Positions 6,391 through 63,972 of a stretch of 64,000 nucleotides of DNA are shown here, in pieces; position 1 is the stretch's first letter, and each line of letters begins with the position of its first letter. The stretch is from Stropharia rugosoannulata. Lineage: Eukaryota > Basidiomycota > Agaricomycetes > Agaricales > Strophariaceae. The stretch lies in contig JANCIK010000007.1 of NCBI GenBank assembly GCA_028532985.1, positions 3,286,001 to 3,350,000 on the forward strand, written 5' to 3'. Under the pieces are notes generated by a model. That model did no database searches and was not told the DNA's origin. It was given only the letters and a program-made list of their open reading frames with translations. Position numbers and translations under genes: made by a program.

Positions 6391-6398
6391 TATAAAAG
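6391..6398 (+). promoter_or_regulatory. Isolated TATA box
   Basis: TATAAAAG is followed about 40 bp downstream by a pyrimidine-rich stretch typical of fungal start sites. No convincing reading frame follows: a possible 40-bp GTATGT...CTCAG intron lies at about 6,556-6,591, and the first ATG after it (6,713) opens only about 21 codons. It could drive a non-coding RNA or be chance. Confidence 0.3.
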
Positions 6399-29428: not shown

Positions 29429-30055
29429 TGTTGCGTAGAATTCGTATAGAGAAAGTAGGGAGAGAATTGATTATTGCGTACGGCTTTGGTTATGTGTGAT
29501 ATGTGAAAGATATATGTATTCAATCGCGCATTTTGTCGGGTTCCAGCTGGGTACCGTGACCGAGACGGTCTAACCAAATAATCATTATGTAAGCGTGGGG
29601 TTATTCTTGAAAAGCTGTTTTATCAACGAGGCCCACAGGCAGAATTGTTGTAAAAATACCGGCTTTCTGAAGAGCTGTGGCGACGGGTACCGTTCTGTGC
29701 TTATCTTCCGATAGACAGGTGTTTTCAAATTGAATGGAAATATATCGAGAGGCAAAGCGTAGTACGCGCGGGCTCAGCGCTCAGCGCTCAGCGTTTAAGC
29801 ACCACCGTTGTTCACATTGCAAATCCTGCTAACACTTTCGTGGTATTGATGAAAGTTGCCTGTGGAAGAGACCAATCTTTATGGCGAATCAGATTAGGGC
29901 AAGCTGGAGTAATGATCAGATCTTCTGGTCGGCCGTTGCCGACGGCATCTTGTCAAAGCTACGCAAACAAAAACATAAACAGGGCGCAAACATATGGAGA
30001 ATGAGATCATGGTGATTGGCGAGGCGTCGTCCCGACTCCCTCTACCTCCACTTAC
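29429..30055. other. Intergenic between divergent genes
   Basis: This is the upstream region shared by the F-box-like gene (-) and the Rho-GEF (+). A short AGCGCTC tandem occurs near 29,776-29,790. No gene recognised; further 5' exons of the Rho-GEF may lie here. Confidence 0.45.
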
Positions 30056-33000
30056 ATGTATGGAAACCTACGCACACCCCCAGCGGCCGTGCCACGCCTA
30101 CCTCCCGGCGCCCAACAGCCAGCAATACCGAACGGTGAATACACGTTCGAGGTGACAACGCCCGCGTACGACGCCGCGCCCATGCATAATCCATGGGACG
30201 CTGTCGCTGGTACCTCGCCTCCCCTACCCCCTCGACCACGAGTACAATCGTTTAACAACTCCAGCGGAAGCATACGCGCTGAACAACTACGATCGTCTTT
30301 CAATGGCCAGCAAACGACAGCGTTCCCTCAACCCATGATGTATGGACAACAGGATCTTGCGACGCCTCGAGTGCGCCACCAGTATAGCCGGAGCGACGAC
30401 GGCAGTCATGGTTCGAGGCATAAGCCACACAACCCATCTGTGGTCTCGTTTGCATCGTCCTATCATGCATAGACCGACGATTTCCACTCAGGAGAGGTGC
30501 GTATACTGCTTAGACTTTTCATAACCTTCACTCGTTTTCTCATTGTAGAGTACACCTGTACAGGACTACGATGGAGAGCTCCAGAAACTTGCGGACCTTT
30601 CGTGTGTATATCTTTGTTCCTTGATCCATGCTTGTTTCACTGACCATCACTAGCGTCCAGTTTAACTTCGGAGGAAGGTCTGCGCCGCTTTCAAGCAACC
30701 GAACTGTTTGAAAACGACCGCGAATGGCATCGTCTCGTCCCACCGGAGGCTCAGGAGGCTTTGGAAAAGCAGGAGGTGCAGCTCCAGTCGGTTATATTCG
30801 AGGTCATAAAATCCGAACTGGAATACGTCGCTGACCTGGAAGCGGTGCAGGATGTAAGCATTTTAGTTCTACACCGTTCGTCTTTATTGATCAGGGGCTA
30901 GGTTTTTATTCAAGGCCTTCGTACCTCCGACCCCCCCACCATGCGCAGTTCACGGTTATCGACATTCGTTAACGAAGTATTTGGTAACTTGAAAGAAATA
31001 ACTTCGCAGCATGGGCGACTTCTTAAAACCCTCTTTGAGCGCCAGCGCGAGCAGCATCCCCTAGTTCAATCAATCGCCGACGTTTTACTCGATGGTAGGT
31101 ACCCAGTCATTACATGTATTCTGAGGCATTTTACATATCTTCCAGCGACAATCAAGTCCGATTCCCGCTCTACATACGAAATATACATCAAGTATTACCC
31201 ACTTGCAGAGTCTCATCACCGACAACAACTTAAATCGAATCGTTCCTACGATGTATTCATTCATTCCGTCGCGGAGGACCCCCGCATTCGGAAGCGTGAC
31301 CTCATAACGTTCCTCTCGCGCCCAGTAACTCGCCTACCCCGGCTCATTCTCCTCGTACAACAAATCCTGAAGCTCACCGATACCGAGTACCAGCACCCCG
31401 ATCTCGAAACTCTCACCATAATCCTTTCTATACTGAACGACTGTGTGAAGAGCACGCAGCCCGGTATCGAAGCTGCTGAGGGCAAAGTCAAGTTTTGGAA
31501 TCTATGTGAAAGTCTCGTATTCCAGAAGGGCAAAATAATCGTAAATTGCATTCTTTTCTTTTTCCGTCATGGAATATGCTTACATGTGGGTACCCTAGGA
31601 CATGGACCTGTACAACGAAAGTCGTTCGCTGGTGTATACGGGACCTGTTGCGCGTCGTGGGCGTACAGAGACAGGTTTCTCAGAGAAGTGGTTGGATCTA
31701 GCAGCCGCTCTGTTAGACAATTATTGTAAGAGTTCTTTCCTATCTACTTCAATCCTAGTGTTGATCTTCCCTTGATTATCCTTACCCGGGAGGATAAAAG
31801 GCCTAATGGCACAATCAAGCGCCTCCTAATGTCCCGCGTGCGTACCTCGATCCGGGTGACGATCCCAATCCTTAACATGTATCAATAGCCCATGCCACAC
31901 TCCTTCCTTCGCCTCGGATCTTTCAACTCCCCACCAGAGTCCCGTCGAGAGAAAACGGACTCGTTCCGGAGTCATCACGTCCAGATATTCCCCTTCACCG
32001 TGTATCACGCTGGGAATAGGGCGACACGGCGGTACACACTCTATGTCAATAGCGAGGCGCAGCGAAAGAAGTGGTACAACGCTTTCGTGGACGCGATGGG
32101 CGTGCATAAGGCGTGTCAGGAGGCGAATATGGTACGTGGGCTGGATATGATCTGTAATTTGGTTCTTACTGGGGCGTTGAACGGATAGTGGTTTAATCCC
32201 CGGACGCTCACCGATGCGTTTTTCCGCACCCCGTCAAGCGACCCGTCTCAGCATCAGGAGTGGCCCTTACTGGGTGCATCAGATGTGCCGTTCCCTTTAG
32301 TGGGTACTTTCATTTCTTACTTTCAGCATGTTACCCATCGTCGGTATCTGCGCATAGGTTAAGGATCGCCGAAGAAGAGATACCTTGCTGTCGGATGTGG
32401 TCCTGGAATATACATTGGCTTAGGTAATTCCGAAAGTGAGTGAACATGAATATCGCACCAGATGTATATAATATGCTGATCCCTCCCACATTTATTCAGG
32501 GTATCTTCGTATTTTAACTTATAAAAACATCCTTGGGCTGGCAGCTCTGACTTCGCTTGGCGACAAGACGTTCAATCGTTTGGTGGTGCATGTCGACTCA
32601 TCGCTTATATCGTATTCCCTTGACACCGTTGTCCGCCGGGTGGGCGGGAGCCAAATGGATTCGCGTACCCTGGAGGCAGCTGTTGAGCGCGTCGTTGGGG
32701 CTGACGTATACGTCACTTTGTTTAAGCACGTCCACGTCGACAAACGTGCTCTGCGTAAGTGCCCTTTTGCTGAAAAATATGCTTTCATGACACGATCTGA
32801 CTTTGTTGTATGTAGTGGTGGTTTCGTCGAAGCGCCGTATGGGGACCTCACTGAACCTCCAAGTTCTGGAGCCCGTCGACTCGGCTGATGTGACCCTTAC
32901 CCCGAAGCGCGTGAGCGGGAAGGAAGCAACAGTTTTTAGGCTGTATGGGCAGGTGAGTGTTTCGGCATTGGCATATGCGAAAAATGTTACTTAGGGCCCT

Positions 33001-33727
33001 CTAGCCTGGATACATCCCTAAAGATGCTCACGCGATCGCTAGCTTGTCAAAAACGATTGGAATATGTACAAGCACTGGGATCATTACACTGGACCCGAAG
33101 AGGTTAGTCATGCATACTTGTTAGATAATTTCCCCGAAGCTCACAAGTTTTGTATATTCAGTATTGCGGATTCCTCAGTCACTGTCGTGCCAGAGTTCCG
33201 GGACATCAGTAATAATAAACCGATGGCTTATCTTAAGGAACGTCTGGAGGGTCTTAAACCACTTGGCTTCATACGCGCAAATCCAACGGAGTTGCTCGTG
33301 ATATACGACGGTACGCACTTTCTCTTCTTTGTTCCTTCCATCATTGATTTCCCTGGCAGAAATCGGCTTCTACATCGACAAGCGTGGAGTCCCCGTGCGG
33401 CACAGCGGATACATCAAGTGGGAGGTGAAGGCCGTGTCGTACGCTGCACGTAACGGTCATATACTGCTTATTTCACCCGAGTTCATCGAAGTCCGGAATA
33501 TAACGACGGGTGCGCTCGCGCAGGTGATCAGCGGGCAGGACATTCGCCTGCTGTATGCCGGTCCGTACGAAGATGTCGACAACCCTGTGCTCATCGTGAT
33601 GCGGGGGACGAAGGACGACCGGGAGGGAGTGAGCGAGCGCGTCATAGAGCTCGTGGAGACGCAAGAGCTGGGCATTGGGGCTGGTACGAATGGGGAGGCG
33701 GGCGCTTGGGATGAATGGGACATGTAA
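30056..33727 (+). pseudogene. Rom2-type Rho1 exchange factor (DH-PH-CNH), probably damaged
   Basis: Fifteen exons can be traced: 30,056-30,496, 30,549-30,603, 30,654-30,853, 30,902-31,094, 31,146-31,540, 31,599-31,725, 31,759-31,837, 31,889-32,131, 32,189-32,303, 32,364-32,435, 32,500-32,754, 32,816-32,952, 33,005-33,102, 33,162-33,310 and 33,360-33,727. The product of about 975 residues has a disordered Pro/Ser N-terminus and a RhoGEF (DH) domain (ATELFENDREWHRL, KSELEYVADLEAVQD, LITFLSRPVTRLPRLILL). A PH domain follows (RPMPHSFLRLGSF, RRYTLYVNSEAQRKKWYNAF), then a C-terminal CNH domain (KKRYLAVGCGPGIYIGL, WEVKAVSYAARNGHILLISP). Relatives activate Rho1 in cell-wall integrity signalling. Two defects: an in-frame TAG at 30,470-30,472 in exon 1, and an exon 6/7 junction whose phases do not match. 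All other junctions fit. Either it is a recent pseudogene, an undetected splice variant bypasses the defects, or the sequence has errors. A DEP domain, present in yeast Rom2, is not seen. Confidence 0.72.
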
Positions 33728-34256
33728 CTTTTAAACAGGATTTTATTCTATTTATCTTTACTATTATACTGATTTTTATCTCGACGTAATTATGCGACTG
33801 TGGGCAGCGTGAAGGGAGAGGAAGGGAGTAGCGTATAGATAAGTTTGTTTAATATCACATCTGGTGTTTTGACAGAGGCGACTAGAGTATGTCCTATACT
33901 TTGAGAGTGCTTATACGGAAAACAAATCGAGGACATGTATCGCAGGGCTTCGAGAAGACTTTCAAGGCGCACTCATAAGTTCATACCTTCCCTTCTATCG
34001 CAGCGAATGTTGCAAGAAGTATCCATTCATGGCTCGATAAATCCAAATTCAGCGCACAGCCCTGGAACAGCGCCTAACAGAAATGTTCATGTAAATCGCG
34101 AGTAATACATGTGGCGCACGTAGACGCCAATTCAGCCTGTCACTTTCAAGTTCTCACCAACTGGTGCTCGCTTACTGCTGCACATGTGAATGATAAAGAA
34201 CTCCGCGATAGCAATAAGGATGCCGTGGGCGTGATCCTGGTTGTCTGTCTTCCACC
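33728..34256. other. Intergenic, nothing recognised
   Basis: Spacer between the Rho-GEF and the truncated F-box frame. No coding signal. Confidence 0.5.
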
Positions 34257-34678
34257 ATGGTCTACGGGACGATGGGTACTGGCAACGCGTCCCTCTCCAA
34301 TTCAGTAAAACCAAAACTCAAGACAAGGACAAAACCTGGAGTTTCGCAGCCACGGGCAGGAAAGCTCGCGTCGTTCCCCTCCACCAACAGAACCGCAATC
34401 AACGTTTCTCTTTCGGCCCACCCGCGCACAGACCCACTTAATGCGCTCACCGTTCTCATGAAACTCGTGGGGTCCCTCCCTGCGCGTACCGGAGGGGCGG
34501 CATACAGGTTGACTCCTGCAGAGCATGTACTAGTTGTCCATCTTGTCAGTATCCTCGATCCGTACGTCTACGCCGGTGCGCGTGTTCTTTCTCCTCGTAG
34601 AGATGCTGGCATGGGACTTGGCCTGCTTGACTTACCCACTGAACTACTGGACGTCATTATCGGCCGTGTTGAGACCAG
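34257..34678 (+). pseudogene. F-box gene fragment cut by the inverted-repeat element
   Basis: A reading frame from ATG 34,257 runs for about 141 residues and ends in LLDLPTELLDVIIGRVETR, the start of a classical F-box. At 34,679 the terminal inverted repeat of the next element begins; the frame then continues only a few residues to a stop at about 34,709. The remainder of the F-box and any substrate-binding domain are missing. No continuation is visible beyond the element's right end at 39,897. Either the element inserted and later rearrangement removed the other half, or the upstream frame is a decayed gene. The first 120 residues are not recognised. Confidence 0.45.
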
Positions 34679-34861
34679 GGTTATGGGCTACTTTTTCTTT
34701 TTTGGGTAGGGTTGGGAGTAGGGTTCAGCCCTAGGGATGGGATGGGTTGGGTTGAGAGCAGTAGGGATGGGTTGGGTTTGGATGGGTTCAGTAGTGTAGG
34801 AACAGGGTGAGTTGGGACAAGTGGTGTTGGGTTGGGTTGAGACAGATGGATACAACTGGTT
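34679..34861 (+). repeat. Left terminal inverted repeat
   Basis: This G-rich repeat (many GGGTTGGG and GTAGGG words) is the partner of 39,686-39,897. The outer 60 bp match the right copy almost perfectly; the middle differs by insertions of GGGATGGGTT-type words. Confidence 0.85.
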
Positions 34862-35540
34862 ACATCACACTGGACTCGTAAAACTGGGGCTCTTGGATCC
34901 CCAGCTTCGTGTGCATCGAGTACATGCAGCAGAACGCTTAAAAATGGGGATCGTCGATCCCCACAATGTCATGCACTCAGTACACTGCACAGGACTCGTA
35001 AAACTGGGGATCGTGGATCCCCTGCTTCGTGTGCATCGAGTACACGCAGCAGAACGCTTAAAAATGGGGATCGTCGATCCCCACAATGTCATGCACTCAG
35101 TACACTGCACTGGACTCGTAAAACTGGGGATCGTGGATCCCCTGCTTCGTGTGCATCGAGTACATGCAACAGAACGCTTAAAAATGGGGATCGACGATCC
35201 CCACTTTTGAGAGCACTGAGTACACTGCACAGGACTCGTAAAACTGGGGCTCTTGGATCCCCAGCTTCGTGTGCATCGAGTACACGCAGCAGAACGCTTA
35301 AAAATGGGGATCGTCGATCCCCACAATGTCATGCACTCAGTACACTGCACTGGACTCGTAAAACTGGGGATCGTGGATCCCCTGCTTCGTGTGCATCGAG
35401 TACATGCAACAGAACGCTTAAAAATGGGGATCGACGATCCCCACTTTTGAGAGCACTGAGTACACTGCACAGGACTCGTAAAACTGGGGCTCTTGGATCC
35501 CCAGCTTCGTGTGCATTGTGTACTTGCAACAGAACGCTCA
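34862..35540 (+). repeat. 120-bp minisatellite, about 5.6 units
   Basis: Each 120-bp unit contains two 60-bp halves, and each half has a palindrome of the type GGGGATCG-n-CGATCCCC or the related GGGGCTCTTGGATCCCC. Each half also has a GTAC-centred motif (CATCGAGTACATGCAGC or CACTCAGTACACTGC). Because 120 is divisible by three, all units stay open in several frames on both strands, which produces long cysteine-rich frames that I do not consider genes. The last unit grades into the RT coding sequence. Confidence 0.9.
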
Positions 35541-36615
35541 AAACTGGGGCTGGTATCACGAAGAGATGTGTGGGATTATGGACCATCCTGACGTTGCCTT
35601 TTACGGGCGATACATTGATGACTGCCTTGCGCTTGTTTACGCTGAATCCGAACAACAAGCACTCCACCTCGTGGAAAGCAGGGTAAAGTTCAATGGTTGT
35701 GAAATCGAATGGGTTGTTTCTGGCAATCAATGCCAATTTCTCGACGTGTTTTTATATAAAGAAGTAGGAACACTTCAATGGAAACCGTTTGTGAAAGCTG
35801 GAAACAATAAGGAACGAATTCCATGGGTATCTCATCATCCTCATGACGTCAAACGCGGCGTCTACATAGGAGAGTGCTCGCGATTAGCCGTGCTATGTAG
35901 TACTAAGGAAAACTACATAGGAGCAATAAAGGACTTAAACACCCTTTACGTGATGCGCGGCTACCCGCCACAACTCATCGGCGCGTGGTGCAAGAAATAT
36001 ATACAAGAACGTTGGGACAAAAGGTTTGCGTTAAAACCTATCGTGCACGACGAAGGCGTTCTTGTCTTGAAAACACGCTTTGACGATGTATGGAATTGGT
36101 TCTCAGCTACCGAACTTGGAAACATCATGACTGGGTATTGGTCAGAGTGGTACACCCGCGCTGAACAAGGTAGATACTCTGCGAGTTCTACCCCAGCCTT
36201 TTATGCCCCAGACACGGATCCACGCGGCCTCGACTCAGTAGATCCCGGATTGTTTAGCGCAGTCCGGGACTTGAAAGGTCAGGAAGTAATGATCCCCGAT
36301 CTTCGCAAAACAGGTATACTCGGGCGTCGTTGGCTTGTCTCGCGTAAGCGGAACAAGAACCTTTACGACCTTTCAACTCAATGGAAGAAGATGGTGTTTG
36401 AAACGCTAGATGAAGTCGCCGCTAATCATAACGCCGACGAACTACAGGTTCAAGACATGGACGTTGTAGAAGAACCCAGAGCACAGATACAGTTACCTGG
36501 ACTCGGCACCGGTATAATACATGACGGTGATATCTTACTACATCAACATGAAAACTCTTCTGACGAAGAGCAGTTTCATCCAGCATTCGGTAGAGCCTCT
36601 AAACGCACCAACTAA
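35509..36615 (+). CDS. Penelope-like reverse transcriptase, N-terminally incomplete
   Basis: This frame of about 368 residues contains a YIDD catalytic box in GRYIDDCLALVYAE, then QFLDVFLYKE. It continues with WVSHHPHDVKRGVYIGECSRLAVL and LNTLYVMRGYPPQLI. That order (RYIDD, FLD, S-x-HP-x3-K, R-G-Y-P) is characteristic of Penelope-like element RTs. The fingers and motif A that should precede the YIDD box are missing: upstream sequence dissolves into the 120-bp minisatellite. No GIY-YIG endonuclease follows; the C-terminal 100 residues are polar and end in DEEQFHPAFG. Endonuclease-lacking Penelope-like elements named Coprina are known from basidiomycete telomeres, and this may be a relative. 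The nominal start is not an ATG with good context, so the frame is best seen as a fragment. Confidence 0.6.
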   Translation: MCIVYLQQNAQNWGWYHEEMCGIMDHPDVAFYGRYIDDCLALVYAESEQQALHLVESRVKFNGCEIEWVVSGNQCQFLDVFLYKEVGTLQWKPFVKAGNNKERIPWVSHHPHDVKRGVYIGECSRLAVLCSTKENYIGAIKDLNTLYVMRGYPPQLIGAWCKKYIQERWDKRFALKPIVHDEGVLVLKTRFDDVWNWFSATELGNIMTGYWSEWYTRAEQGRYSASSTPAFYAPDTDPRGLDSVDPGLFSAVRDLKGQEVMIPDLRKTGILGRRWLVSRKRNKNLYDLSTQWKKMVFETLDEVAANHNADELQVQDMDVVEEPRAQIQLPGLGTGIIHDGDILLHQHENSSDEEQFHPAFGRASKRTN

Positions 36616-37509
36616 AAAGATACAAACATACGATTCAGGATTAACGCGTTCTAAACCCAAAACCCTAACGTATGACATCTTTCTCAATAATTTGCATTTA
36701 ATTATTGACTTGTATATCAAGCCTAAACCTAAACCTTAACTTATCAACGACGCAGATTACCTGCGTGTTGGCTCTCATGGCTTATTAGAACGGTTGTTTT
36801 TATCCGGCATGGGATGCCGCGGTTTGAAAAGCAAAGACGTAACTCTCAGAAAAGGTAAATCCTCACGGTTCTTAGTAAGGGACGCACGACACTGGCCCAG
36901 TACGCGAGCGCCTTTCGGGTATTTATGGTGAAAGAACACCGCACGCTCAGGCGGAGACTTCTTAGTACTTTAGGTCGTACCCATACAAAGGGAAAACGAA
37001 ACGAGATAAGATAAGATAAGGATGTGGCTGTGCCAGATCTAATCAGTTTAGATAAGATAAGATAAGATAGGACGCTGATCATCTGGTAAAGATATACAAC
37101 ACGCCAACATATCGTTTGCACAAGGCATCTTCGATGCGATCTCACTGATCGACGAGATCGCGAGGTTGTACCGCGAAACACCCGCGCAGGTATACGCAGC
37201 CTTAACGCTGCCGTGCGTAGCCATAAGGCTACGCCTGTTATACTTGTCAAATACACCGAAGATGAAACGATATTGCTATATTGGTACGCTAGGCAGCGCG
37301 AAACACTTACTGATATCCAGATATGTAACGCTGCCCCGAGGCTGCGTCTGACGACGCATCCTAGTCAAGTACAGCCACTGACGAGTCTATAAAGACGAAA
37401 GGGCCAGCTGGACTAATCCCCAGCCCTTTGGCTTTGACTTTCTCCCCTCTCCTCAGCTAACTAGTCGCTCATCGCCTTCGGCGATTTCGCTCCCCCCTAA
37501 ACCCAGTTT
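36616..37509. other. Interior of the inverted-repeat unit, non-coding
   Basis: Downstream of the RT frame, CCCTAAC at 36,661 and CCTAAACCTAAACC at 36,721 look like degenerate telomere-type repeats. Two GATAA clusters follow at 37,004-37,020 and 37,052-37,069. The rest shows no gene that I recognise. The last part reads TTTAG-CCC-rich sequence leading into the 119-bp array. Confidence 0.5.
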
Positions 37510-39685
37510 CACGAAGCTGGAGCAGTGTACTCAGTGCAGATAATATTGCGAAGCAAGATCACAAGTTTTGACTGTTCTGCTTCGAGTACTTGGTGCACAC
37601 GAAGCTGGGGCGTGTGGAGCCCATGTTTCACGATGCTGGAGCAGTGTACTCAGTGCAGACAATATTCCGAAGCAAGATCACACATTTTGACTGTTCTGCT
37701 TCGAGTACTTGGTGCACATACAGCTGGGGCTCCACGCGCCCCAATTTCACGATGCTGGAGCAATGTACTCAGTGCAGATAATATTGCGAAGCAAGATCAC
37801 AAGTTTTGACTGTTCTGCTTCGAGTACTTGGTGCACACGAAGCTGGGGCGTGTGGAGCCCATGTTTCACGATGCTGGAGCAGTGTACTCAGTGCAGATAA
37901 TATTCCAAAGCAATATCACAAGTTTTGAGTGTTCTGCTTCGAGTACTTGGTGCACTCGCAGCTGGGGCTCCACGCGCCCCAATTTCACGATGCTGGAGCA
38001 GTGTACTCAGTGCAGACAATATTCCGAAGCAAGATCACAAGTTTTGACTGTTCTGCTTCGAGTACTTGGTGCACTCGCAGCTGGGGCTCCACGCGCCCCA
38101 ATTTCACGATGCTGGAGCAGTGTACTCAGTGCAGACAATATTCCGAAGCAATATCACAAGTTTTGAGTGTTCTGCTTCGAGTACTTGGTGCACTCGCAGC
38201 TGGGGCTCCACGCGCCCCAATTTCACGATGCTGGAGCAGTGTACTCAGTGCAGACAATATTCCGAAGCAATATCACAAGTTTTGAGTGTTCTGCTTCGAG
38301 TACTTGGTGCACTCGCAGCTGGGGCTCCACGCGCCCCAATTTCACGATGCTGGAGCAGTGTACTCAGTGCAGACAATATTCCGAAGCAAGATCACAAGTT
38401 TTGACTGTTCTGCTTCGAGTACTTGGTGCACACGAAGCTGGGGCGTGTGGAGCCCATGTTTCACGATGCTGGAGCAGTGTACTCAGTGCAGACAATATTC
38501 CGAAGCAATATCACAAGTTTTGAGTGTTCTGCTTCGAGTACTTGGTGCACTCGCAGCTGGGGCTCCACGCGCCCCAATTTCACGATGCTGGAGCAGTGTA
38601 CTCAGTGCAGACAATATTCCGAAGCAAGATCACAAGTTTTGACTGTTCTGCTTCGAGTACTTGGTGCACTCGCAGCTGGGGCTCCACGCGCCCCAATTTC
38701 ACGATGCTGGAGCAGTGTACTCAGTGCAGACAATATTCCGAAGCAAGATCACACATTTTGACTGTTCTGCTTCGAGTACTTGGTGCACATACAGCTGGGG
38801 CTCCACGCGCCCCAATTTCACGATGCTGGAGCAATGTACTCAGTGCAGATAATATTGCGAAGCAAGATCACAAGTTTTGACTGTTCTGCTTCGAGTACTT
38901 GGTGCACACGAAGCTGGGGCGTGTGGAGCCCATGTTTCACGATGCTGGAGCAGTGTACTCAGTGCAGATAATATTCCGAAGCAATATCACAAGTTTTGAG
39001 TGTTCTGCTTCGAGTACTTGGTGCACTCGCAGCTGGGGCTCCACGCGCCCCAATTTCACGATGCTGGAGCAGTGTACTCAGTGCAGATAATATTGCGAAG
39101 CAAGATCACACATTTTGACTGTTCTGCTTCGAGTACTTGGTGCACTCGCAGCTGGGGCGCGTGGAGCCCCAGTTTCACGATGCTGGAGCAGTGTACTCAG
39201 TGCAGACAATATTGCGAATCAATATCACAAGTTTTGTGTGTTCTGCTTCGAGTACTTGGTGCACTCGCAGCTGGGGCTCCACGCGCCCCAGTTTCACGAA
39301 GCTGGAGCAATGTACTCAGTGCAGATAATATTGCGAAGCAAGATCGCAAGTTTTGACTTTTCTGCTTCGAGTACTTGGTGCACACACAGCTGGGGCTCCA
39401 CGCGCCCCACTTTCACGATGCTGGAGCAGTGTACTCAGTGCAGATAATATTGCGAAGCAAGATCACAAGTTTTGTGTGTTCTGCTTCGAGTACTTGGTGC
39501 ACTCGCAGCTGGGGCGCGTGGAGCCCCAGTTTCACGATGCTGGAGCGGTGTACTCAGTGCAGATAATATTCCGAAGCAATATCGCAAGTTTTGACTGTTC
39601 TGCTTCCAGTACTTGGTGCACTCGCAGCTGGGGCTCCATGCACCCCAATTTCACGAAGCTGGAGCAGTGTACTCAGTGCTCACAA
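37510..39685 (+). repeat. 119-bp minisatellite, 18 units
   Basis: Eighteen units, counted by the motif CTGCTTCGAGTACTTGGTGC (one variant has CCAGTACTT), are spaced 119 bp apart with few differences. Each unit has a palindrome-flanked loop, GGGGCTCCACGCGCCCC or its inverted version GGGGCGCGTGGAGCCCC (sometimes decayed to GGGGCGTGTGGAGCCC). Each also has the motif CAGTGTACTCAGTGCAG, shared with the 120-bp arrays. Read on the minus strand the unit resembles the 120-bp unit and the RT-adjacent sequence. Overlapping frames of 118 residues along the array are a by-product of three units being 357 bp. Confidence 0.92.
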
Positions 39686-39897
39686 ACAGTTGTATCCATC
39701 TGTCTCAACCCAACCCACCACCAATTGTCCCAACCCAACCAGTCCCTACCATACTGAACCAATCCCAACCCAACACATCCCTACTCATCTGAGCCCAACC
39801 CAACCCATCCCTACCCATCTGAGCCCAACCCAACTCATCCCTAGGGCTGAACCCTACTCCCAACCCTACCCAAAAAACAGAAAAGTAGCCCATAACC
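39686..39897 (-). repeat. Right terminal inverted repeat
   Basis: This C-rich repeat (CCCAACCCAACC and CATCCCTA words) is the inverted partner of 34,679-34,861, with matching outer and inner blocks and a variable middle. Confidence 0.85.
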
Positions 39898-40410
39898 AAA
39901 ACGGCCATGCAGCATCGTGTGGCTGCATGGCTGCATGGCGAGGTGGGGCGGGTACGGGTGGGGCGGGGCGTGGAGGCGGCGTGGCAGCGAGATCAGGCAG
40001 GGCGGCGTGGCAAGGCGAGGCGGCGTGGCAGAGAGGTGAAGCAGGGTGGCAAGGCGGCGTGGCGGATGTCGCTGCGTGGCTGATGCGTGGCGGGGCGGGA
40101 CAGAGGAGCAGGCTGCGTGGCGGCGACGTTGGGTGTGGCGTGGCGTGGTCGGACAACCGGCTGCAAGATAGCCGGCTGCTGGCTACCGCTGCGTGGCTGC
40201 CGTGCGTGGCAGGAGCCTTGCATGGCTGGCACATGAAAGCCGTGCATGGCAGTAAAGTAGCCGGTGTTGCCGACTACGCCATGTTCGGCATAAAGCGTGG
40301 CAAGATGTGCCGTGAGCTGCCGGCGTGGCGGCGACGCGTGGCGGGAATTGCCGGTGAGCCTGCCACGCACGGCAGCCACGCACGGCCAGGTTGGCCTGCC
40401 ACGCAGCCTT
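39898..40410 (+). repeat. GC-rich block of GCGTGGC words
   Basis: GTGGC or GCGTGGC occurs well over a dozen times at irregular spacing, mixed with TGCCGTGCGTGGCAGG-like longer words, sometimes inverted (GCCACGC near 40,370 and 40,400). It keeps long shadow frames open on both strands; none looks like a protein. It starts directly at the right inverted repeat. Confidence 0.7.
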
Positions 40411-40415
40411 ACAGT

Positions 40416-40568
40416 ATTTTATTTGTACAACTCGTAAAACAAACAAATAAAATGTTGTGAGACATCATATGGGGGTTTTCAAGGCGTGGGAATCCGAATC
40501 TGCAATCAGATTTGTTCCCACGGTTACCGTTCAGGCCCATAACCCATGCCCCCGCTCCGCGGGGGCAT
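40416..40568. other. Hairpin-rich linker
   Basis: Three potential stem-loops lie in 150 bp. ATTTTATTTGT pairs with ACAAATAAAAT (40,416-40,426 with 40,443-40,453). An imperfect GGGAA/AATCTG stem pairs with CAGATT/TTCCC (about 40,489-40,519). A perfect 10-bp stem ATGCCCCCGC with GCGGGGGCAT has a 3-nt loop (40,546-40,568). It joins the GTGGC block to the inverted 120-bp array. Confidence 0.65.
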
Positions 40569-40574
40569 AGGTAT

Positions 40575-41480
40575 AGTTTTACGAGTCCTGTGCAGTGTAC
40601 TGAGTGTATGACATTGTGGGGATCGACGATCCCCATTTTGAAGCGTTCTGCTGCATGTACTCGATGCACACGAAGCAGGGGATCCACGATCCCCAGTTTT
40701 ACGAGTCCAGAGCAGTGTACTCAGTGCTCTCAAAAGTGGGGATCGTCGATCCCCATTTTTAAGCGTTCTGCTGCATGTACTCGATGCACACGAAGCTGGG
40801 GATCCAAGAGGTCCAGTTTCACGAGTCCTGTGCAGTGTACTGCGCGCATGACATTGTGGGGATCGACGATCCCCATTTTTAAGCGTTCTGCTGCGTGTAC
40901 TCGATGCACACGAAGCAGGGGATCCAAGAGCCCCAGTTTTACGAGTCCAGAGCAGTGTACTCAGTGCTCTCAAAAGTGGGGATCGTCGATCCCCATTTTT
41001 AAGCGTTCTGTTGCATGTACTCGATGCACACGAAGCAGGGGATCCACGATCCCCAGTTTTACGAGTCCAGTGCAGTGTACTGAGTGCATGACATTGTGGG
41101 GATCGACGATCCCCATTTTTAAGCGTTCTGCTGTGTGTACTCGATGCACACGAAGCTGGGGATCCAAGAGCCCCAGTTTTACGAGTCCAGAGCAGTGTAC
41201 TCAGTGCTCTCAAAAGTGGGGATCGTCGATCCCCATTTTTAAGCGTTCTGTTGCATGTAATCGATGCACATGAAGCAGGGGATCCACGATCCCCAGTTTT
41301 ACGAGTCCTGTGCAGTGTACTCAGTGCTCTCAAAAGTGGGGATCGTCGATCCCCATTTTTAAGCGTTCTGTTGCATGTAATCGATGCACATGAAGCAGGG
41401 GATCCACGATCCCCAGTTTTACGAGTCCAGTGCAGTGTACTGAGTGCATGAGATTGTGGGGATCGACGATCCCCAGAATA
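40575..41480 (-). repeat. Inverted copy of the 120-bp minisatellite, about 7.5 units
   Basis: Read on the minus strand these units match the array at 34,862-35,540, including the GGGGATCG-n-CGATCCCC palindromes, the CGAGTACATGCAGC motif and the ACTCGTAAAACTGGGG segment. It lies outside the right terminal inverted repeat. No RT frame is attached on either side. Confidence 0.9.
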
Positions 41481-41815
41481 TTCGCAAAGTCCAGCAAGTA
41501 AGCCATCCCCACATATCCAAATTCAGGATTGCCTCCAGGATTGCTAAGAACCCTTATCCAAGTTAATCCTACCTTATCATTTGAAATGGATCTCTATCTT
41601 ATGTATTTTATCTTATCTTATCTTATCTATATATTTTTATCTTATCTTATCATATGACCATCCCTCTTGTTCCACTTAGTGGTTTGAAGTCTAGTGTCTT
41701 TTACATTGTAGACTAGTGAAGATGTGCTTAATGTTTACATATCACCACTGGCAGAGGTAGAGAGGCTGGGTTGATTAAGATCTGCAAGAGTAGGTTTATG
41801 CTAGTCATGCACATG
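41481..41815. other. Transition into AT-rich DNA with TTATC repeats
   Basis: A TTATC cluster at about 41,596-41,652 mirrors the GATAA clusters near 37,004-37,069. No gene. From here rightwards CpG dinucleotides become rare. Confidence 0.6.
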
Positions 41816-41916
41816 CTATTAGCTAGTGTTGCCACAGTCTGACTCAGTGAAGGACCTTGTTTGGGTCTGGTCAAGTGCTCAGTGATGGCCCATTTGTATG
41901 TCCTGCTAGAAATGAT

Positions 41917-43587
41917 CTAACACAACACAACCAACAACCACAACAAAAACACACAACCAATCTCAAACAAATGCTTCTTTAATGCGAAGTCGGGGGTCTA
42001 TGTACAAAAGAAAGACACAGTTGTCTTTTATAATATAAGCCAGGTAAACATTTCTTAACACAAAGACTCAGCCCAAGGGGCGTGGTGGTGTAGTGTGATA
42101 AGTGTAGTTTGTGTGTGTATAACACGAGGTGCTCGAATGAGACTTAGTCTGACACGACGATCAGAAAGATAACTGAAAACTGTTTAACCACTCCAGGTAT
42201 GTGCACGATGACACTGCCTGCAAATTAAACTGCTCCAGGTATACATTAAATGTTGCCTGCAAAACTGCTTCCAGACTCAAGACTTAGTCAAGTAATCCAT
42301 CAAAAGCTTTGAACTCTCTCTAAACTCCCAGTGAGGACTTTAAACCGTATATATTCACTCTAGGTAATCTACTCGGGGGAACCTGCTATTCTACGTTACA
42401 TGCTGGGGTATTTATACGTTTCTGGGAGACAGGTTTTCGTAGGCGCCTGGAGGTGTTCTCTACTAAAACCTCGCACCCCGATTGGTTTGTAGGTCCATAC
42501 GGTTCTGCCCGTTGAATTACATTTTAGTTGTTCTAGATGAGTGGAGTAAGAATTTGAAATAACTGAAAAAGGATAGATTCTGAAGGCTTGTCAGGAACAA
42601 GCCTATTTTTAGAACAGTTAAACCGTCTTTTGGTGCCTGGGCGTCTGCCTGCCTCCTGAGTACAGTCAGTTTTACTACGCCTTGGCTTTTTGGAATGTAA
42701 GCTGGGACAGAGTTACCCCACTGGTGAGTTATCTCTCCTCCGGCTGTACCCTCTCTTCAGGGTCTATCAGGCTCCCACCAAATAGCCCGCTATATTCCCT
42801 CTGTATGGCCAGTACGAAGCCTCGCTAATTAGCCCGGTAGAACTGTCTAAGTTTATTAGCCCAGCTTATTGACCTTTGCTAATTAACCCGGTATAACATT
42901 CAAGCCCGGTATAATGACTAAGTCATTTAGCCCTGTATAATGCCTAAGTCAAATAACCCGGTATAATTACTTGAGTTAAATAACCCAGCATAATAATCTG
43001 CTTTTCCTAATCTCTCATTTTCAATGGCTGGTTTTTAGAAGACTGACCCACTATAAGTCTCTAGTTGAGTTTTGTCATCATGGTTGGTGTCATTTAACCC
43101 AGTATAATTTAGCCTTGTATAATGCCTCTGCCTTTGCACTCTGTTTAACCCGCTTATCTGACTTTCTTGAAATTGAAGACACTACTAAGTGTATTTCTTG
43201 GGCAGTAACTTTACATTTAGCCAGGTATAACTATACTAGGTTAAATGCAAAGTGTACCTGTGCTCTCCTTTGTGCCAGGCTTATTATTATTCTAACTTTA
43301 AGCCGGTCAGATGCGCTTATAAGCCATACTGGTCCTGTGACTAAGTCCAACCATAAAGGCTTATTAACCTGCTTGTTTAAAGTCTCTTGGTTTACTCTCC
43401 AGTTAAGTTCTTTAACATGGACAGTTACTGTTGTCACTTTTACTTAAGCTTTTAGTGTGGTTTTGCTTATAGTTAAAATAGCCTGCTTGATTGATTAAGT
43501 GGAGGTCTACACTTGTCTTCGTTATTCTCTGTCTCTCATTGGGTCATACTGAAGTCTTTGATATGGACTTTAATAGTCTAGACTACT
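41917..43587. mobile_element. Unclassified 1.7-kb insertion inside the hAT
   Basis: GAAATGAT flanks it on both sides (41,909-41,916 and 43,588-43,595), as expected for an 8-bp target duplication, and hAT-like sequence resumes outside. The ends do not form an obvious inverted repeat and no long frame is present. The interior from about 42,870 to 43,240 repeats a TTAACCCGGTATAAT-like word about ten times. It may be a non-autonomous hAT or a decayed LTR element. Confidence 0.45.
42870..43240 (+). repeat. Dispersed TTAACCCGGTATAA motif
   Basis: Variants such as TTAACCCGGTATAA, AAGCCCGGTATAATGACTAAGT, AGCCCTGTATAATGCCTAAGT and TTAACCCAGTATAATT recur at spacings of roughly 25-40 bp. Variation is mostly C/T or G/A, consistent with decay at CpG. 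Confidence 0.6.
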
Positions 43588-43823
43588 GAAATGATAGGGT
43601 TTATAGTAAAATTGCAAAATTTCATGGCCAGGCACTTAGGTGCCCTATCATAGGCTTGACTTAGACAGTTTTGGCAGAACTTTCAAAGTCAGTCAAGCGA
43701 AGTCATAAACAATTGACTTGACTTGACTTGATGTAGACGCAAAGCGGCTAAGTCAATGACTTAACCCTAAAATAGTAATCATACCAAAATTGTACATAAA
43801 TTAGTACACACGCCATGGCAATC

Positions 43824-46800
43824 TCAAGAAAGAGATGACATGAGAGACTGTATATAGGCATTTATGTCCTCGGGAACAGCAGCTTTGTCAACCAGCACTG
43901 ATGTAAGATAACTCTTGATGTCCTCCCTAGATGTTCCTTGTGTAAAGTTCAGACTTTTACCTGCCTTGAGAGAAAATTTAAGCATTTGTAGCATTTCCAT
44001 CAGATCTTCATTAATGCAGCTGCATCAAGGTGTCATAGTTTCCTTTGCTGATGAGAATACACACTCACACGGGACAGCAGACCCCTGAATTGCAAGGTAA
44101 TCCAAAGCTGCCATAAACAGTGTCAGATAGCGGAGCTGGTGTTCCTACATGTACTGGATTAGATGTTCCTTAATTTAAGTAGAGCTAATAGATGTATTTA
44201 CCTGCCAAAACAACAAGGAGCATGTGCTGGTTGATGAGTCATTTAAGTACTGGGTAATCTCAATATCCAGTGAATTTCTTGCTTGCATGTTTGCCCTCGA
44301 CAAGCCAAGAATCTCATCAGCAGTTCAGCAAGCAGTTGAATTCCGAATTGAATGACCCCAGATCATTCTCGATCGGCGAGGAGTATAGTCATGTGCCTGC
44401 AATGATTGCACCATGGGAGCTACCTAGTTAGTATCGAGGGGGTTCATTGTTTGAGCCCTAGCTAATATGGTCTTGCTTTGTAGATATTTCTTGTAGTATG
44501 GGTTGAGCTGTATATGTTATATAGAACATTAATTCAATATTTATTTTGGAGAATTAATTAAACTTACTGTGTCTCACAGCAAAATCTGTGCTTCATTTTG
44601 CTTTTCAACAGGGATGTAGTTCAACTTCATATCAGGATTCAATACTTATGAAAAATTAGCAATATATGTTAGTATATAAGTATATAACTCACTCATTGCA
44701 ATAATGTATGCAGGATTTGAACTAATCCGGTCCTGGTATATATTCAACTTCTTGATACCTTCCTCTATGATCTAGGAGAATGGAGAACCAAAAGAGGCTT
44801 GAAGGTCCCTCCACACCGAGATTATGGCATCAAAGCATGGGAGTGCATTGCAAAGTGTAGGTGTTTTCTCAGCTGAAAGCTTTTGTTGAAAGGCATCAGG
44901 CACCTATGCAATTCTAAGTTCACACAAACTATAATAGAATAATAGAATAAACATACTATCAATATTTCCTGTGCATAGGTAAAAATAGTCCAATGTGCTT
45001 CGGACAGTTTCTTTAAGTCTCGAAAATCATTTGATGCAGACATTGCTGTGAGAGCCTACCATTGTTGAAAGATTAAGTCAGGAATAAGTTGACACCAATA
45101 TAAACACATTACATGCCTTTTCAAGACACAGTGCACAGTCAATCATGTATAAAGTAGAAGACCAGCTTGTATCAACATCTCGAAGAAGTTGTAGGTCACA
45201 TCTGTGATATGTTTTTGCAAGTTCATCAAAATGTTGGCAGCGAAGAGATGATGCACGGATCTAGATAGAGTAAAATATGAATTGAATTAACCAAGCAAAT
45301 CAAACAACATACCCCACATATGACAGAATGAAGAACTGGAATTGGATCACCATCAAGATCCAAAAATAGATCTGATGAATCATGCATATCTTCAATCTTT
45401 GACAGTGCTGCAAGCACTGCCTTGCACGCCAGATTTACAATATGTGGAAAGCATCTAAACTTTATTTTAATTAAATACTCTGGTGATTTATGAATTACAT
45501 ACCTTATGCTGTTATGGTGTCAATCAAACGGTATGTCTCATACTTGCAGCTCACATTCAAGAATCATCATAAATGTGTCATTATTGGATGCATTGTCGAG
45601 CATAACCCAGCCAATCTACAACAGAAAATATTATTAGATATAGCATAAAAACAGGACATGTTGATACACACCTTGTCTGTAATTGAAAGCTGGTCTAGAA
45701 TATATAAAAATGATTGTGCAAGATGCTCGCCATTATGACGGCCTGGAACTCGGTGAAATCCAATAAGCTCAGACTTTAGTGTGAGAACATGCTGTGGCCC
45801 ATTGGCAGTCTGTACTAATGTTGTGTGAATCCAGTGTGCTGTTACAACCATGAATGGACTAAGATTCGGATCAGACCACAAGTTGGTTGTCAAAGAAATC
45901 TTTCCAAGTGCGCCCTAGGAGATTATTAGTAATAGTATATAATAAAGTAGAAATGTAGACATGCCTTCAGATCAGACTCAAGCTGAGTGAGGTGTTCATC
46001 CCACAGTGACTTAATCCGATTACAGATTGTTGTGCAGTGTGGGATTTGATCATCTGTCAAATCTTTACGAAGAAGCATAAAGATTCTCTGCAAGTGTGGG
46101 CTTTCTATGACATTGATTGACTAAATTTAACTATTAGTAAATCAGAGTGATAGGCAGACATTAACGTATATATGCTCACCTGATCATCTGCAATAATAAA
46201 TTCGGTAATTGCATCCACAAAAGCATTGTAAGAAAACTCCGGAATATTGGAGGGCCGATTGCTCAATGGTGCAATGTTTCCCAATGCAGTGACATCACCC
46301 TTTGAGGTGCGATACTGTGCCACAGGACCCTTAGCCTTATCAGCAGTAATTGCAATATTCATTTTGTCACATCCATCAACCCAAAGTGGCAAATGGTATG
46401 TAATCAAATGACCTTGCAGGGTTGTAGTGCTTGTTTCGATGGCAAATGGAAAAACCTCATGGGCTGAGTTAATTGAATTCTGCTGTCTGATAAAGTACCA
46501 GTAAATAGCTGCTCAATTAAGAGACTCTAAATGAAAACATACTCGCAGAATAAACAAATCCGGGCTTCAGTTGTTTGTTGAAAAAAAGTCCAGACATCTC
46601 GTGCAGCACATGTGTTCTTTTTGCCACCTTTTGAATGAGCACTCGACAACTTTGACACAGTGTGTGAGTGACTCTGTGTGCCATGAGTCCAACCTGATTG
46701 AGGCAAGTCATGTGATTTAGTTTGTGGTGTTGTCTGACCAGACTCGGATGTACTTGTTGTCGGACTCGGATCAGGGATACCCAAAGGGAAAGCGTGTGTG

Positions 46801-57799: not shown

Positions 57800-59537
57800 T
57801 TATAGACGGTGTTGGGTTCGATACTTGTTAAGTACATCTGAGGTGTTCTTCAGGTTTGCTGGTGGCTCCCAGGAGTCCTCATTGGCGTCGTAGCCCTTCC
57901 ATCTGACCAAGTATTCAGTTCTTTTGCCCTTCCTTCTATGGTGCATAATTCGTTCCACTTTGTATTCAGATTCCTCGTCGATTAATTCAGGGGGTGGTTG
58001 TGCGTAGTTAGGTCCGTGGGCCTCGGTTTCCTTATACGGTTTGAGTAGTACGATGTGAAACACATTGTGGATTTTCCAGTGGGGAGGTAGGTTTAATTTA
58101 TACGTGACAGGGGAGAGCACCTCCGTGATCGTAAACGGGCCAACATTTTTCGGGGATATCTTCTTTGATGTGTAGTTCATCTTAAGGTTACAGGCATCGA
58201 GCCAGACCTTATCTCCCTTCTTATAGGTTGACGAGTCGTGCTTGGTCCGCTTGATCATTCTTTGTCGCGCTAGTTCGTGAGCAGCCAGTGCTTCTTCTCT
58301 GTCCTTCTGAAGCGTCTTGAATCTCTCTTCCGCTTCTGGGAATTTCGTATATTTGTACGCGGTTGGGATGGCGATGGGGTTCACTCCCATCTGCAGCTTG
58401 AATGGGGTTTTCTGACGGTAGGCATGTCTTCGGCTGTTATGGGTAAAATCCAACGTTCCTAGTTTTCGGCTCCATGTGGTCGGGTTATTTACGCAAAATA
58501 TGGAAATGTAGGCTTCAATTTCTTGATTGAAGCGTTCCACCGTTCCGTCGGTCTGGGGGTGGTATGCGGTGGACAGTTTCTGCGTGATGCCGAGTAGTTT
58601 CATGAATTCCCTGAAGACCCTTGCGGTAAACCTAGGGTCTCGATCACTGGTAATTGCGTCCAGTAGGCCGTATCTTCTGAATAAGTTGTCGATCAAAAGC
58701 TGCGCGATCTCCTCCTCATTTGCCGTTTTGTTGGTTTTTACGGTAATTAGCCCCTTAGTAGATCCATGGTCCACTATGGATAGAATGGCGTCATACCCAT
58801 CGCTGTTTGGGAGGTCGGTTATCAGATCCCAGGTGCAGTTTGCGAACGGTCTGTTGGAGGTGGGCGCTTTGATTGGGTTTAGAGTTGGTTTGTTCGGGCG
58901 CCTGTTTATTTTAAACTCTTGGCAGGTGCCACAGCCTTTACAGTAGTTTTTGACGAATACCGCCATGCCTGGCCACCAGTACACATCCCTAACATTGTTG
59001 AGCGTTTCAATTTCTCCTGGGTGGCCCGCGGTCAGGTTGTCATGGTAGCGTTGGGTGATTTTCCTTCTGAGTAGAAGGTTGTTGGGTATGTATTGCTTTT
59101 CTTGGTAAAACAGTCCCATTTCGCTACCGCTTTGTTCGAGCATCCATTCTGGGACTTCTTTTGCTCCTTTCCCGGTGGGGTCGTTTATTAAATCGATAAT
59201 CCTGTGGGCGAAGTCGTCGGTTGTCAGTGCCTGGGAGATTTCGTCTTGGAGTTCTAGATCTATGTAATTGATCTTGACTTCCTTGTCAAGGCTGAGTTGT
59301 CGTATGGATAGTTTGGATAGAGCCTCGTTTTGGTATTCGATCAACCTTGCGAATAGATCTCCCTGTAACATTGTGACTTTTTCGTCATTCTCATCGTTTT
59401 TTGGGATGTGGTCCGGCCTTCTGGATAGCGCGTCAGACTGTATCATCTGGGTTCCTGGAGTGTGTTTCATCTCGAAGTCGTACTGCAACAGGAGTAGTAA
59501 CCATCGTGCTTGACGTCCATTTAGTTTCTGGGGAGTA
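57800..59537 (-). CDS. Chromovirus pol, C-terminal part: RNase H end, integrase, chromodomain
   Basis: The frame begins inside RNase H (PQKLNGRQARW, then QYDFEMKHTPGTQMIQSDAL). It continues through an integrase zinc finger (HDNLTAGHPGEIETL to CKGCGTC), the catalytic core with its acidic residues in WDLITDLP, TSDRDPRF and DGTVERFNQE, a GPFTITEVLSPVTYKL linker domain, and a C-terminal chromodomain (YKVERIMHHRRKGKRTEYLV, then RWKGYDANEDSWEP). The chromodomain defines the chromovirus clade and would target insertion to modified histones. It is open throughout and separated from the upstream pol part by the insertion at 59,542-60,751. Confidence 0.9.
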
Positions 59538-59541
59538 TGGT

Positions 59542-60754
59542 GACAGGGCTGCTTTTTGGCTACGGGTGTAAACAGCCAGGAGTTCCGTTAATGGGATAGC
59601 TGCGCGCAGGAAACACAGAGGGACTAGAGTGGCGCCTGACTCGTAGTCTGCAGCTATCAGCGCGCCTTATGACGATAAGCGCCTGCGCGCACCGTATTGC
59701 GAGAGAGATCGGTCAGCGAGCTGCACAGCCTAAAGTGCATAGTCTGGTCATCCGTGCGAGCGATCGGAGAGGCGTAGAACGGTTAAGCACCAGCAAAGTG
59801 CGGTGTGAGTACAGCTGAGCGAGTACCAAGGGCGGTGTGAAGGGCTGTGCGCGCATCTCATGTGCGCGCATCGCAAAAGGCAGAATTTGCCTAAGTCCAC
59901 ACATCATGTGACCGTGGCGGCACGCATCAAAAGAGACGCGCAAAAGCCCGAGGGAACAAACGACATGCGCGCAGCGAATGCCAAGGGATCAGGACACTCG
60001 AAGGGAAGCCCGGATGCGATGCGCGGACCTTTGGCCGCGCGTTGCTAGTATTTACTTCACCTTATTATTAGTACACATGCGCGCATCGCATATAAACCTG
60101 TATCCTTGTCTATAGTAATTTAAGCAATTGTCTACCCACTAGATCTGTGTGCTGGGTTCTGTCCCAGGCCGTCGGCGGGCTGTGTTTAGCTTTTGTTAGG
60201 GTTTTAACTGTGAAGTAATTGTGAATCATAGGAGTTTTGGATAGCTTCTGGCCACCGGGTCATTTGGAGAGCTCAGTGAGGAGTCAGTACAACCGTGTAC
60301 GGAAACTCGCACTGTAGTGTTTAGACTGTGAGACTGCACCGCCAGGTGAAAGACTTTGGAGAGTCTTGGATTGTTGGACTTTGGAGAGTCCGCGCATCGC
60401 ACGAGGTCACCGGACCCGGAAGTGCGCGCAGCGAAGCCGTTCGCTAAAAACAACTTATTTCATTTATCATTTTGCCTAGCGCACGCCACTAGCAACCGGG
60501 CTCTATTCGAGATTTACTAGAATTAAACCCCTCCTTACAAACGAATTTGCAGGCACTACTTGCTATTACAAAGACTAGAGGACACGAGGTGCGCGCATCG
60601 CACTCCCAGAACGGGAACCAGAGCAGAGCATAGATTATACTAGCCGTTTAGTTGAGGGCGTTCGCTCGATCTAAGGGATAGGATCTCGCTCCGCTGGGTA
60701 TGCGTGTGTGTTGTGTTTCGCGATTTCGAGTCTAGCTACGCAGTAGACCTCTCA
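59542..60754. mobile_element. 1.2-kb LTR-like insertion within pol
   Basis: It splits RNase H exactly between LTYYR and PQKLNGRQ. The ends read TGAGAGG...CCCTGTCA on the minus strand, and flanks ACGGT (right) and ATGGT (left) look like a 5-bp target duplication with one transition. A TATA-like TATAAAC lies at 60,091 and the core (59,922-60,447) recurs at 55,199. No coding frame is recognisable, so it may be a solo LTR or a small non-autonomous LTR element. Confidence 0.6.
60091..60097 (+). promoter_or_regulatory. TATA box in the LTR-like insertion
   Basis: TATAAAC is preceded by GCGCATCGCA and conserved in the decayed copy at 55,368. It would suit an LTR U3 promoter reading rightwards. Confidence 0.4.
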
Positions 60755-62598: not shown

Positions 62599-62615
62599 TG
62601 AACTATTTCTCCTTT

Positions 62616-63800: not shown

Positions 63801-63972
63801 GGGTTATTCTCCTTCCATGTCTGGTCTGAATCTTTCTGGTTCTGGTGATTCCGAGGTTCTGGTTAACTCAGTCGGGGTTGTCGTTTCACTGGTCCAATAT
63901 CTGGTTGCCGTGGTGTCGTTGTCTCGGGGCGTTACGAGGTGAGGCTCGCAACGATAAGGGAGTTAGTTCTTT

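What the first reader, a model, noticed from the sequence alone, without database searches (positions are those of the whole stretch)
34679..39897. A reverse-transcriptase fragment enclosed by long inverted repeats and matching minisatellites
The sequence shows ~200-bp inverted ends, an array of palindrome-bearing repeats just inside each end, and a Penelope-like RT frame between. Known Penelope-like elements do not have this layout, and DNA transposons with such ends do not encode this RT. It could be a new composite element, two retroelement copies joined in inverted orientation, or an RT gene captured by a DNA transposon.
Basis: partly seen in the sequence, partly recalled or inferred. Interest (0 to 1): 0.85.

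Follow-up and report, generated by a model that had tools for sequence, protein, structure and literature searches.

The report
Two chromosome-end stacks, face to face
What looked like one new mobile element in a fungus is really two piles of DNA of the kind normally added to chromosome tips, pointing at each other inside a chromosome, most simply the scar of two chromosome ends having been joined.

Summary
The inverted ends, minisatellites and Penelope-like RT frame exist, but they are not one element. The genome holds at least 28 copies of the "end" module. They share one outer edge (within 1 nt), and 27 of 28 point to the nearer contig end; the exception is this finding's right end. The two ends are different subfamilies (78.5% alike; each 96-100% alike to copies elsewhere), with no target-site duplication. 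The RT piece is a 5'-truncated Penelope-like element (PLE); its 3' end carries a telomere C-strand copy (CCCTAAACCC) fused with 3-nt overlap to the right array. The left end is fused with 4-nt overlap into a gene that continues unbroken in two subtelomeric copies. Elsewhere these modules stack in one orientation at chromosome ends; here two stacks converge at 35,549/35,550 without telomere repeats. Best reading: an end-to-end join of two uncapped chromosome ends (or an exchange between subtelomeres), 221 kb inside contig C7. Reads and relatives are needed to exclude misassembly. RT-less, satellite-bearing units sharing a telomere-like 3' end are the most novel part.

The parts
30000..34678 (+). 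Left flank: gene-bearing block, also present at both ends of C7 (96%); cut at 34,678
   Evidence: copies at C7:42,432-47,140 (-) and C7:3,524,884-3,529,501 (+); those two copies match each other (94.8%) for 1.8 kb past the break; CNH domain at 33,302-33,724, E 1.1e-12. The block may start before 30,000.
34679..34867 (+). Head A: G-rich chromosome-end module, telomere-ward to the right
   Evidence: 100% identical to C13:2,673,943-2,674,131, 99% to C13:20,711 and C7:3,542,457; joined to the broken gene with 4-nt overlap AGGG
34868..35549 (+). Array A, 120-bp units with 19-bp palindromes
   Evidence: follows head A in the same orientation at C13L, C13R and C7R
35549..35550 (.). Convergence point of the two stacks; no telomere repeat
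   Evidence: sequence; single CCCTAAA between 34,000 and 42,000 lies at 37,495, no TTTAGGG; no N in the window
35550..36615 (+). PLE1: 5'-truncated Penelope-like RT reading frame (stop at 36,613-36,615)
   Evidence: second copy at C4:27,750-28,596, 99%, truncated further in
36616..37504 (+). PLE1 3' region; ends in a hairpin (ATCGCC/GGCGAT) and CCCTAAACCC, the last CCC shared with array B
   Evidence: same 3' end at C4 and C7R
37502..39679 (-). Array B, 119-bp units (distal side is to the left)
39680..39897 (-). Head B, telomere-ward to the left: the one of 28 heads against the orientation rule
   Evidence: 96.3% to C10:3,149,112, C13:2,670,594 and C13:22,861; orientation; joined to the GC segment with 1-nt overlap
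39898..40574 (+). GC-rich subtelomeric segment with fixed 3' boundary (hairpin + ATAGGTATAG)
   Evidence: 97% at C5:165-858 and C7:38,822-39,515; boundary joined to three different neighbours
40575..41475 (-). Second array of type A, inverted to the left array
   Evidence: arms 92% complementary

Best explanation
The interval is where two stacks of chromosome-end elements meet head-on inside contig C7. Left stack (telomere-ward to the right): a gene block broken at 34,678, capped by head A and array A. Right stack (telomere-ward to the left): array A, the GC segment, head B, array B, then a 5'-truncated PLE whose telomere-like 3' end was seeded on array B. Shown: the orientation rule and its exception, two subfamilies at the two ends, short overlaps at junctions, 5' truncation, no telomere repeat at the meeting point. 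Inferred: each unit was laid down at an exposed chromosome 3' end by a telomeric, endonuclease-independent PLE-type reverse transcriptase, and two such ends, without telomere caps, were later joined end to end (a fusion, or an exchange between subtelomeres).
For: Heads: 27 of 28 point to the nearer contig end, the exception being the window's right head; PLE1 4 of 5 and the GC segment 7 of 8 break the rule only here; PLE2 3' regions 18 of 18. The two heads are 78.5% alike but 100% and 96.3% alike to single heads elsewhere. At C13R the A and B units stand in tandem in one direction. The gene cut at 34,678 continues in two subtelomeric copies; the same neighbourhood is cut at window 26,929 and capped by a head at C3:4,289,870. 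In 13 junctions with known unbroken parents the overlap sums to 38 nt against 9.2 +/- 3.9 in random joins, 0 of 20,000 as high. PLE1 and PLE2 end in CCCTAAACCC next to a hairpin; PLE2 copies at C2L, C8R and C9R are 5'-truncated directly by telomere repeats. C4L shows PLE2, X, PLE1, X stacked in one direction.
Against: No reads and no related genome could be examined, so a chimeric contig is not excluded. One of 13 junctions has no overlap, and the GC segment's 3' end is not telomere-like. Two other interstitial sites (C10 at 275 kb, C9 at 516 kb from an end) keep the normal orientation, so such material can lie internally without a facing partner. An X copy at C10:182,998 also breaks the rule. 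No longer PLE1 copy exists in the assembly to show what precedes 35,550. That the heads and arrays are RNA-templated is not shown.
Confidence: 0.65

Rival explanations
1. Assembly artefact: two chromosome ends, or a 221-kb minichromosome and C7, were joined by chimeric reads or the assembler.
For: No reads could be checked; both sides are subtelomeric, where assemblies fail most; the piece to the right of the join would be flanked by end-type sequence on both sides.
Against: No N in the window; no telomere repeats at the join, although natural ends such as C7R and C8R carry them; the join is between array A and non-array sequence, so array overlap alone does not explain it; the arms are 71-78% alike, so it is not a fold-back read.
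Confidence: 0.15
2. One internal double-strand break whose two ends were each extended with chromosome-end elements and then re-joined.
For: Endonuclease-less RTs can in principle use any 3' end (established view, PMC6431247 section 8); the left gene is cut exactly at a head.
Against: The right side is a multi-unit stack (array A, GC segment, head B, array B, PLE1), implying repeated exposure of that end; the left block is otherwise found near contig ends.
Confidence: 0.08
3. Concerning only how units were added: head-array units spread between chromosome ends as DNA, by break-induced copying seeded at telomere-like sequence at the proximal edge of a head, not by reverse transcription.
For: Junction overlaps are mostly telomere-like (AGGG, GG, GGTT, TTA), which would also seed strand invasion; such events are described for MoTeR telomeres in a fungus (PMC7367193, passages); arrays of 20 kb and more at C13L, C1L and C3R exceed a usual transcript.
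Against: Copies begin at one base at 28 sites (within 1 nt), as expected from the fixed 3' end of a template; PLE1, PLE2 and heads interleave with different truncation points.
Confidence: 0.35
4. A DNA transposon or composite element with ~200-bp inverted ends that captured an RT.
For: The inverted layout itself.
Against: Ends occur singly with fixed orientation to contig ends, belong to two subfamilies, show no target-site duplication, and enclose no RT in inverted orientation at any other of the sites found.
Confidence: 0.03

Closest known systems
Telomere-associated, endonuclease-less Penelope-like elements (Athena, Coprina; Gladyshev & Arkhipova 2007, paper not held, known from citations and recall)
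   Same: PLE-type RT, no GIY-YIG match in the longest frame examined, 3' end toward the chromosome interior, 5' truncation by telomere repeats, telomere C-strand copy at the 3' end.
   Different: 3' fold is a plain hairpin with no hammerhead found; the window copy is interstitial, reversed and meets another stack; clade placement not tested.
Terminons of bdelloid rotifers (PMC6431247, section 8 read)
   Same: Telomeric PLE stacks, 5'-truncated copies, a telomere-complementary 3' end after a terminal fold; that review foresees fusion and internalised islands.
   Different: No hammerhead; RT-less minisatellite units here; elements far shorter than 40 kb.
PLEs at Agaricus bisporus chromosome ends (PMC7473861, passages)
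   Same: PLEs at or next to telomeres of an agaric.
   Different: The passages seen describe no convergent stacks or head-array units.
MoTeR telomeric retrotransposons of the blast fungus (PMC7367193, passages)
   Same: 5' end toward the chromosome end, truncated copies stacked in telomeres, interstitial telomere tracts as break points.
   Different: MoTeRs are LINE-type (PMC10088271, passages), not PLEs; no face-to-face relic in the passages seen.
HeT-A/TART/TAHRE telomeres of Drosophila (PMC5537684 seen in listing only; otherwise recalled)
   Same: Head-to-tail chains at chromosome ends, with members that lack RT sharing 3' features.
   Different: Here TTTAGGG telomere repeats are present as well, and the RT is PLE-type.
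Chromosome fusion sites in Kwoniella (PMC11185503, passages)
   Same: End-to-end fusion discussed in basidiomycetes; no interstitial telomere repeats at the join, as here.
   Different: Here both former end stacks are still legible.

Membership tests
Endonuclease-less telomeric PLE | PLE-type reverse transcriptase | tested here: met
   YGRYIDD and alignment of PLE1 and PLE2 with fungal relatives; PLE2 RVT_1 E 3.5e-6, just below Pfam's own cut-off. The PLE1 fragment alone gives no Pfam match. That these motifs are PLE-typical is recalled.
Endonuclease-less telomeric PLE | No GIY-YIG endonuclease | tested here: inconclusive
   PLE2, 913 residues scanned: only RVT_1 at E <= 10; its next ~112 residues upstream were not scanned, and the N-terminus is lost in C8R. 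PLE1: 377-residue frame, nothing at E <= 1; its N-terminal part is missing.
Endonuclease-less telomeric PLE | At chromosome ends with the 5' side telomere-ward | tested here: met
   PLE2 18 of 18, PLE1 4 of 5, the exception being the window
Endonuclease-less telomeric PLE | 5'-truncated copies abutting telomere repeats | tested here: met
   PLE2 at C2L, C8R, C9R
Endonuclease-less telomeric PLE | 3' end complementary to the telomere G-strand | tested here: met
   CCCTAAACCC at PLE1 and PLE2 3' ends
Coprina clade | Position in an RT phylogeny | not tested
   no curated Coprina or Athena sequences at hand
Terminon | 3' hammerhead ribozyme | tested here: not met
   Rfam at E <= 1 on window 34,000-42,500 and L013, L015, L030, L034: no hammerhead
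DNA transposon with inverted ends | Both ends of one family, recurring as a pair | tested here: not met
DNA transposon with inverted ends | Target-site duplication | tested here: not met
   no shared word over 5 nt between 32-nt flanks, none flush with both ends
Chromosome end-to-end join | Two subtelomeres facing each other inside a contig | tested here: met
Chromosome end-to-end join | Telomere repeats retained at the join | tested here: not met
   not required, as fusions of uncapped ends lack them (PMC11185503, passages)
Chromosome end-to-end join | Flanks on separate chromosomes in relatives; reads span the join | not testable with these tools
   no relatives or reads held for this genome

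The most novel reading that the evidence does not exclude
The fungus carries a guild of telomere-added retroelements: RT-bearing PLEs plus RT-less families (A and B head-minisatellite units and the ORF-carrying X element) that share a 3' end ...GTAGCCCATAACCC resembling the telomere C-strand. They would be mobilised in trans by the PLE reverse transcriptase, heal broken chromosome ends alongside a telomerase-type repeat, and seed the subtelomeric satellites. The window would be a fusion of two ends healed this way: a Drosophila-like arrangement built on PLEs in a fungus.
Probability: 0.4. Interest if true: 0.75.

Novelty: new variant of a known kind. Interest (0 to 1): 0.5.

Why it matters
It is a readable record of chromosome ends being broken, capped by element addition and then joined, with both stacks still legible; the Kwoniella fusion sites retained no interstitial telomere repeats (PMC11185503, passages). 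If RNA templates are confirmed, it ties subtelomeric minisatellites to retroelement-based end healing in a fungus that also keeps ordinary telomere repeats.

Tried and rejected
Single transposon with inverted ends: rejected (orientation rule, subfamilies, no target-site duplication). Hammerhead ribozyme: none; the mir-4891 and mir-4436 hits are far below their gathering scores and taken as chance. Idea that head B is the 3' end of PLE1 itself: dropped when PLE1 copies at C4 and C7R were seen to end in CCCTAAAC without array or head. Idea that array A is PLE1's own 5' part: disfavoured because relatives continue with RT sequence there, but no longer PLE1 copy exists to prove it. Sister-chromatid fold-back: rejected because the two flanks differ. 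X-ORF function: no significant Pfam family for it or five relatives; AlphaFold2 model of relative P0109 has mean pLDDT 49, so no fold search was made. Solved structures: P0008 none at E <= 0.001, PLE2 one chance match, E 0.36. Gladyshev & Arkhipova 2007 and Arkhipova et al. 2017 are not held. Literature searches; among the rows listed I saw no title on facing telomeric PLE stacks, which does not prove absence.
Full report
WHERE. The window is C7:3,286,001-3,350,000 of a 48-Mb, 20-contig assembly; C7 is 3,543,007 bases and its right end carries (TTTAGGG)n. The assembly is unnamed; the best named RT relative is from Psilocybe cyanescens, 56%, so an agaric is likely but not shown.

Inverted ends, both arrays and the RT frame are at the stated places. 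The left array contains 19-bp palindromes, the right array none by the same search. The RT frame begins just past GLAMGVxDSP and so lacks the upstream part of the RT domain that P0003 and P0008 have; by itself it gives no Pfam match.

THE ENDS ARE CHROMOSOME-END MODULES. BLAST with the 189-bp left end gave 33 matches: 27 sites starting at query base 1 or 2, plus 6 short internal pieces that I dropped; a pattern search adds a 28th, a ~37-base piece at C8:8,672. The tool warns that counts are lower bounds. Twenty-two of the 28 outer edges could be read; each is preceded by G and joined to a different neighbour. On the G-rich strand 27 of 28 run toward the nearer contig end; the exception is the right end of this finding. 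One of the 27 (C15, 74 kb into a 161-kb contig) decides little, and the lengths of C11 and C12 were estimated.

OTHER MODULES GIVE THE SAME RULE. PLE1: 4 of 5, exception the window. GC segment: 7 of 8 sites, exception the window; of the 21 matches the other 13, shorter pieces or parts of the same sites, were dropped, among them interior pieces of about 100-120 bases on C7 and C11. PLE2 3' region: 18 of 18, dropping three 27-base hairpin matches. X element: 6 of 7, exception C10:182,998; one 52-residue interior match on C7 dropped. Tallies.

THE TWO ENDS ARE NOT A PAIR. Left and right heads are 78.5% alike, but the left is 100% identical to C13:2,673,943 and the right 96.3% to heads on C10 and C13. 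At C13R the two kinds stand in tandem in one direction: head B, array B, head A, array A.

HOW UNITS ARE JOINED. The left head is fused into a gene block that continues at C7L and C7R, where the two copies match each other for 1.8 kb past the break. The gene looks F-box-like by eye only; Pfam found nothing. A second break nearby, at window 26,929, is capped by a head at C3:4,289,870. In 13 junctions whose unbroken parents are known, overlaps are 4, 2, 1, 3, 4, 3, 0, 3, 3, 4, 6, 2, 3: 38 nt in all, against 9.2 +/- 3.9 for random joins of the same sequences, 0 of 20,000 reaching 38. These are the junctions I could reconstruct, not a random sample, and one has no overlap. PLE1 and PLE2 end in a hairpin plus CCCTAAACCC.

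STACKS. At C4L the order from inside outward is PLE2, X element (head, array C, ORF), PLE1, X element, each fused to the truncated 5' side of the one before (C4:23,813-26,000 was not read). PLE2 copies at C2L, C8R and C9R are 5'-truncated directly by telomere repeats. This is the behaviour described for endonuclease-less telomeric PLEs (PMC6431247, section 8), and PLEs are reported at telomeres of Agaricus bisporus (PMC7473861, passages).

THE WINDOW. From the left: gene block, head A, array A. From the right: array A, GC segment, head B, array B, PLE1. They meet at 35,549/35,550 with no TTTAGGG repeat. Two subtelomeres facing each other 221 kb from the contig end are best read as an end-to-end join, or an exchange between subtelomeres. 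That each unit was laid down by reverse transcription primed by the chromosome end is inference. Main rivals: a chimeric contig, and DNA-level copying of head-array units.

MEMBERSHIP AND NOVELTY. PLE1 and PLE2 work like endonuclease-less telomeric PLEs. I do not file them as Coprina (no phylogeny) or as terminons (no hammerhead found). The RT-less, satellite-bearing units with a shared telomere-like 3' end, and the preserved facing stacks, are the new variant.

Noticed in passing
L019 5,187-5,953 against 5,935-10,000 (C13 about 15,945): Array A folds back on itself inside the left-end stack of C13, then a TTTAGGG-head follows: a second inverted array junction.
   Followed up: no
C10:274,879-276,356 and C10:182,998: An interstitial head, PLE2 and PLE1 stack pointing left, 275 kb from the end, and an X-ORF copy (66%) pointing right 92 kb away: possibly an older, degraded facing pair.
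   Followed up: no
C9:2,820,655-2,821,680: A 91% PLE2 3' region about 516 kb from the contig end, oriented normally: another interstitial relic.
   Followed up: no
L034, L038, L039, L041: X element: a 459-554-residue frame without Pfam match, upstream of array C and a head; relatives of up to 890 residues in Pholiota, Gymnopilus and Hypholoma. It may be a structural protein of a non-autonomous telomeric element.
   Followed up: partly
C7R and other contig ends: Telomere repeat is TTTAGGG; 12 contig ends carry it among the rows listed (list cut).
   Followed up: partly
window 39,898-40,574: The GC segment has a constant 3' edge (hairpin plus ATAGGTATAG) joined to three different neighbours, as if it too were the 3' end of a chromosome-end element, but without a telomere-like end.
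   Followed up: partly
window 41,842-46,500: Two dispersed repeats with many copies, about 87-98% alike, on many contigs adjoin the right-hand stack.
   Followed up: no
window 57,800-63,803 (-): Long open frames that look like Ty3/gypsy gag-pol by eye.
   Followed up: no
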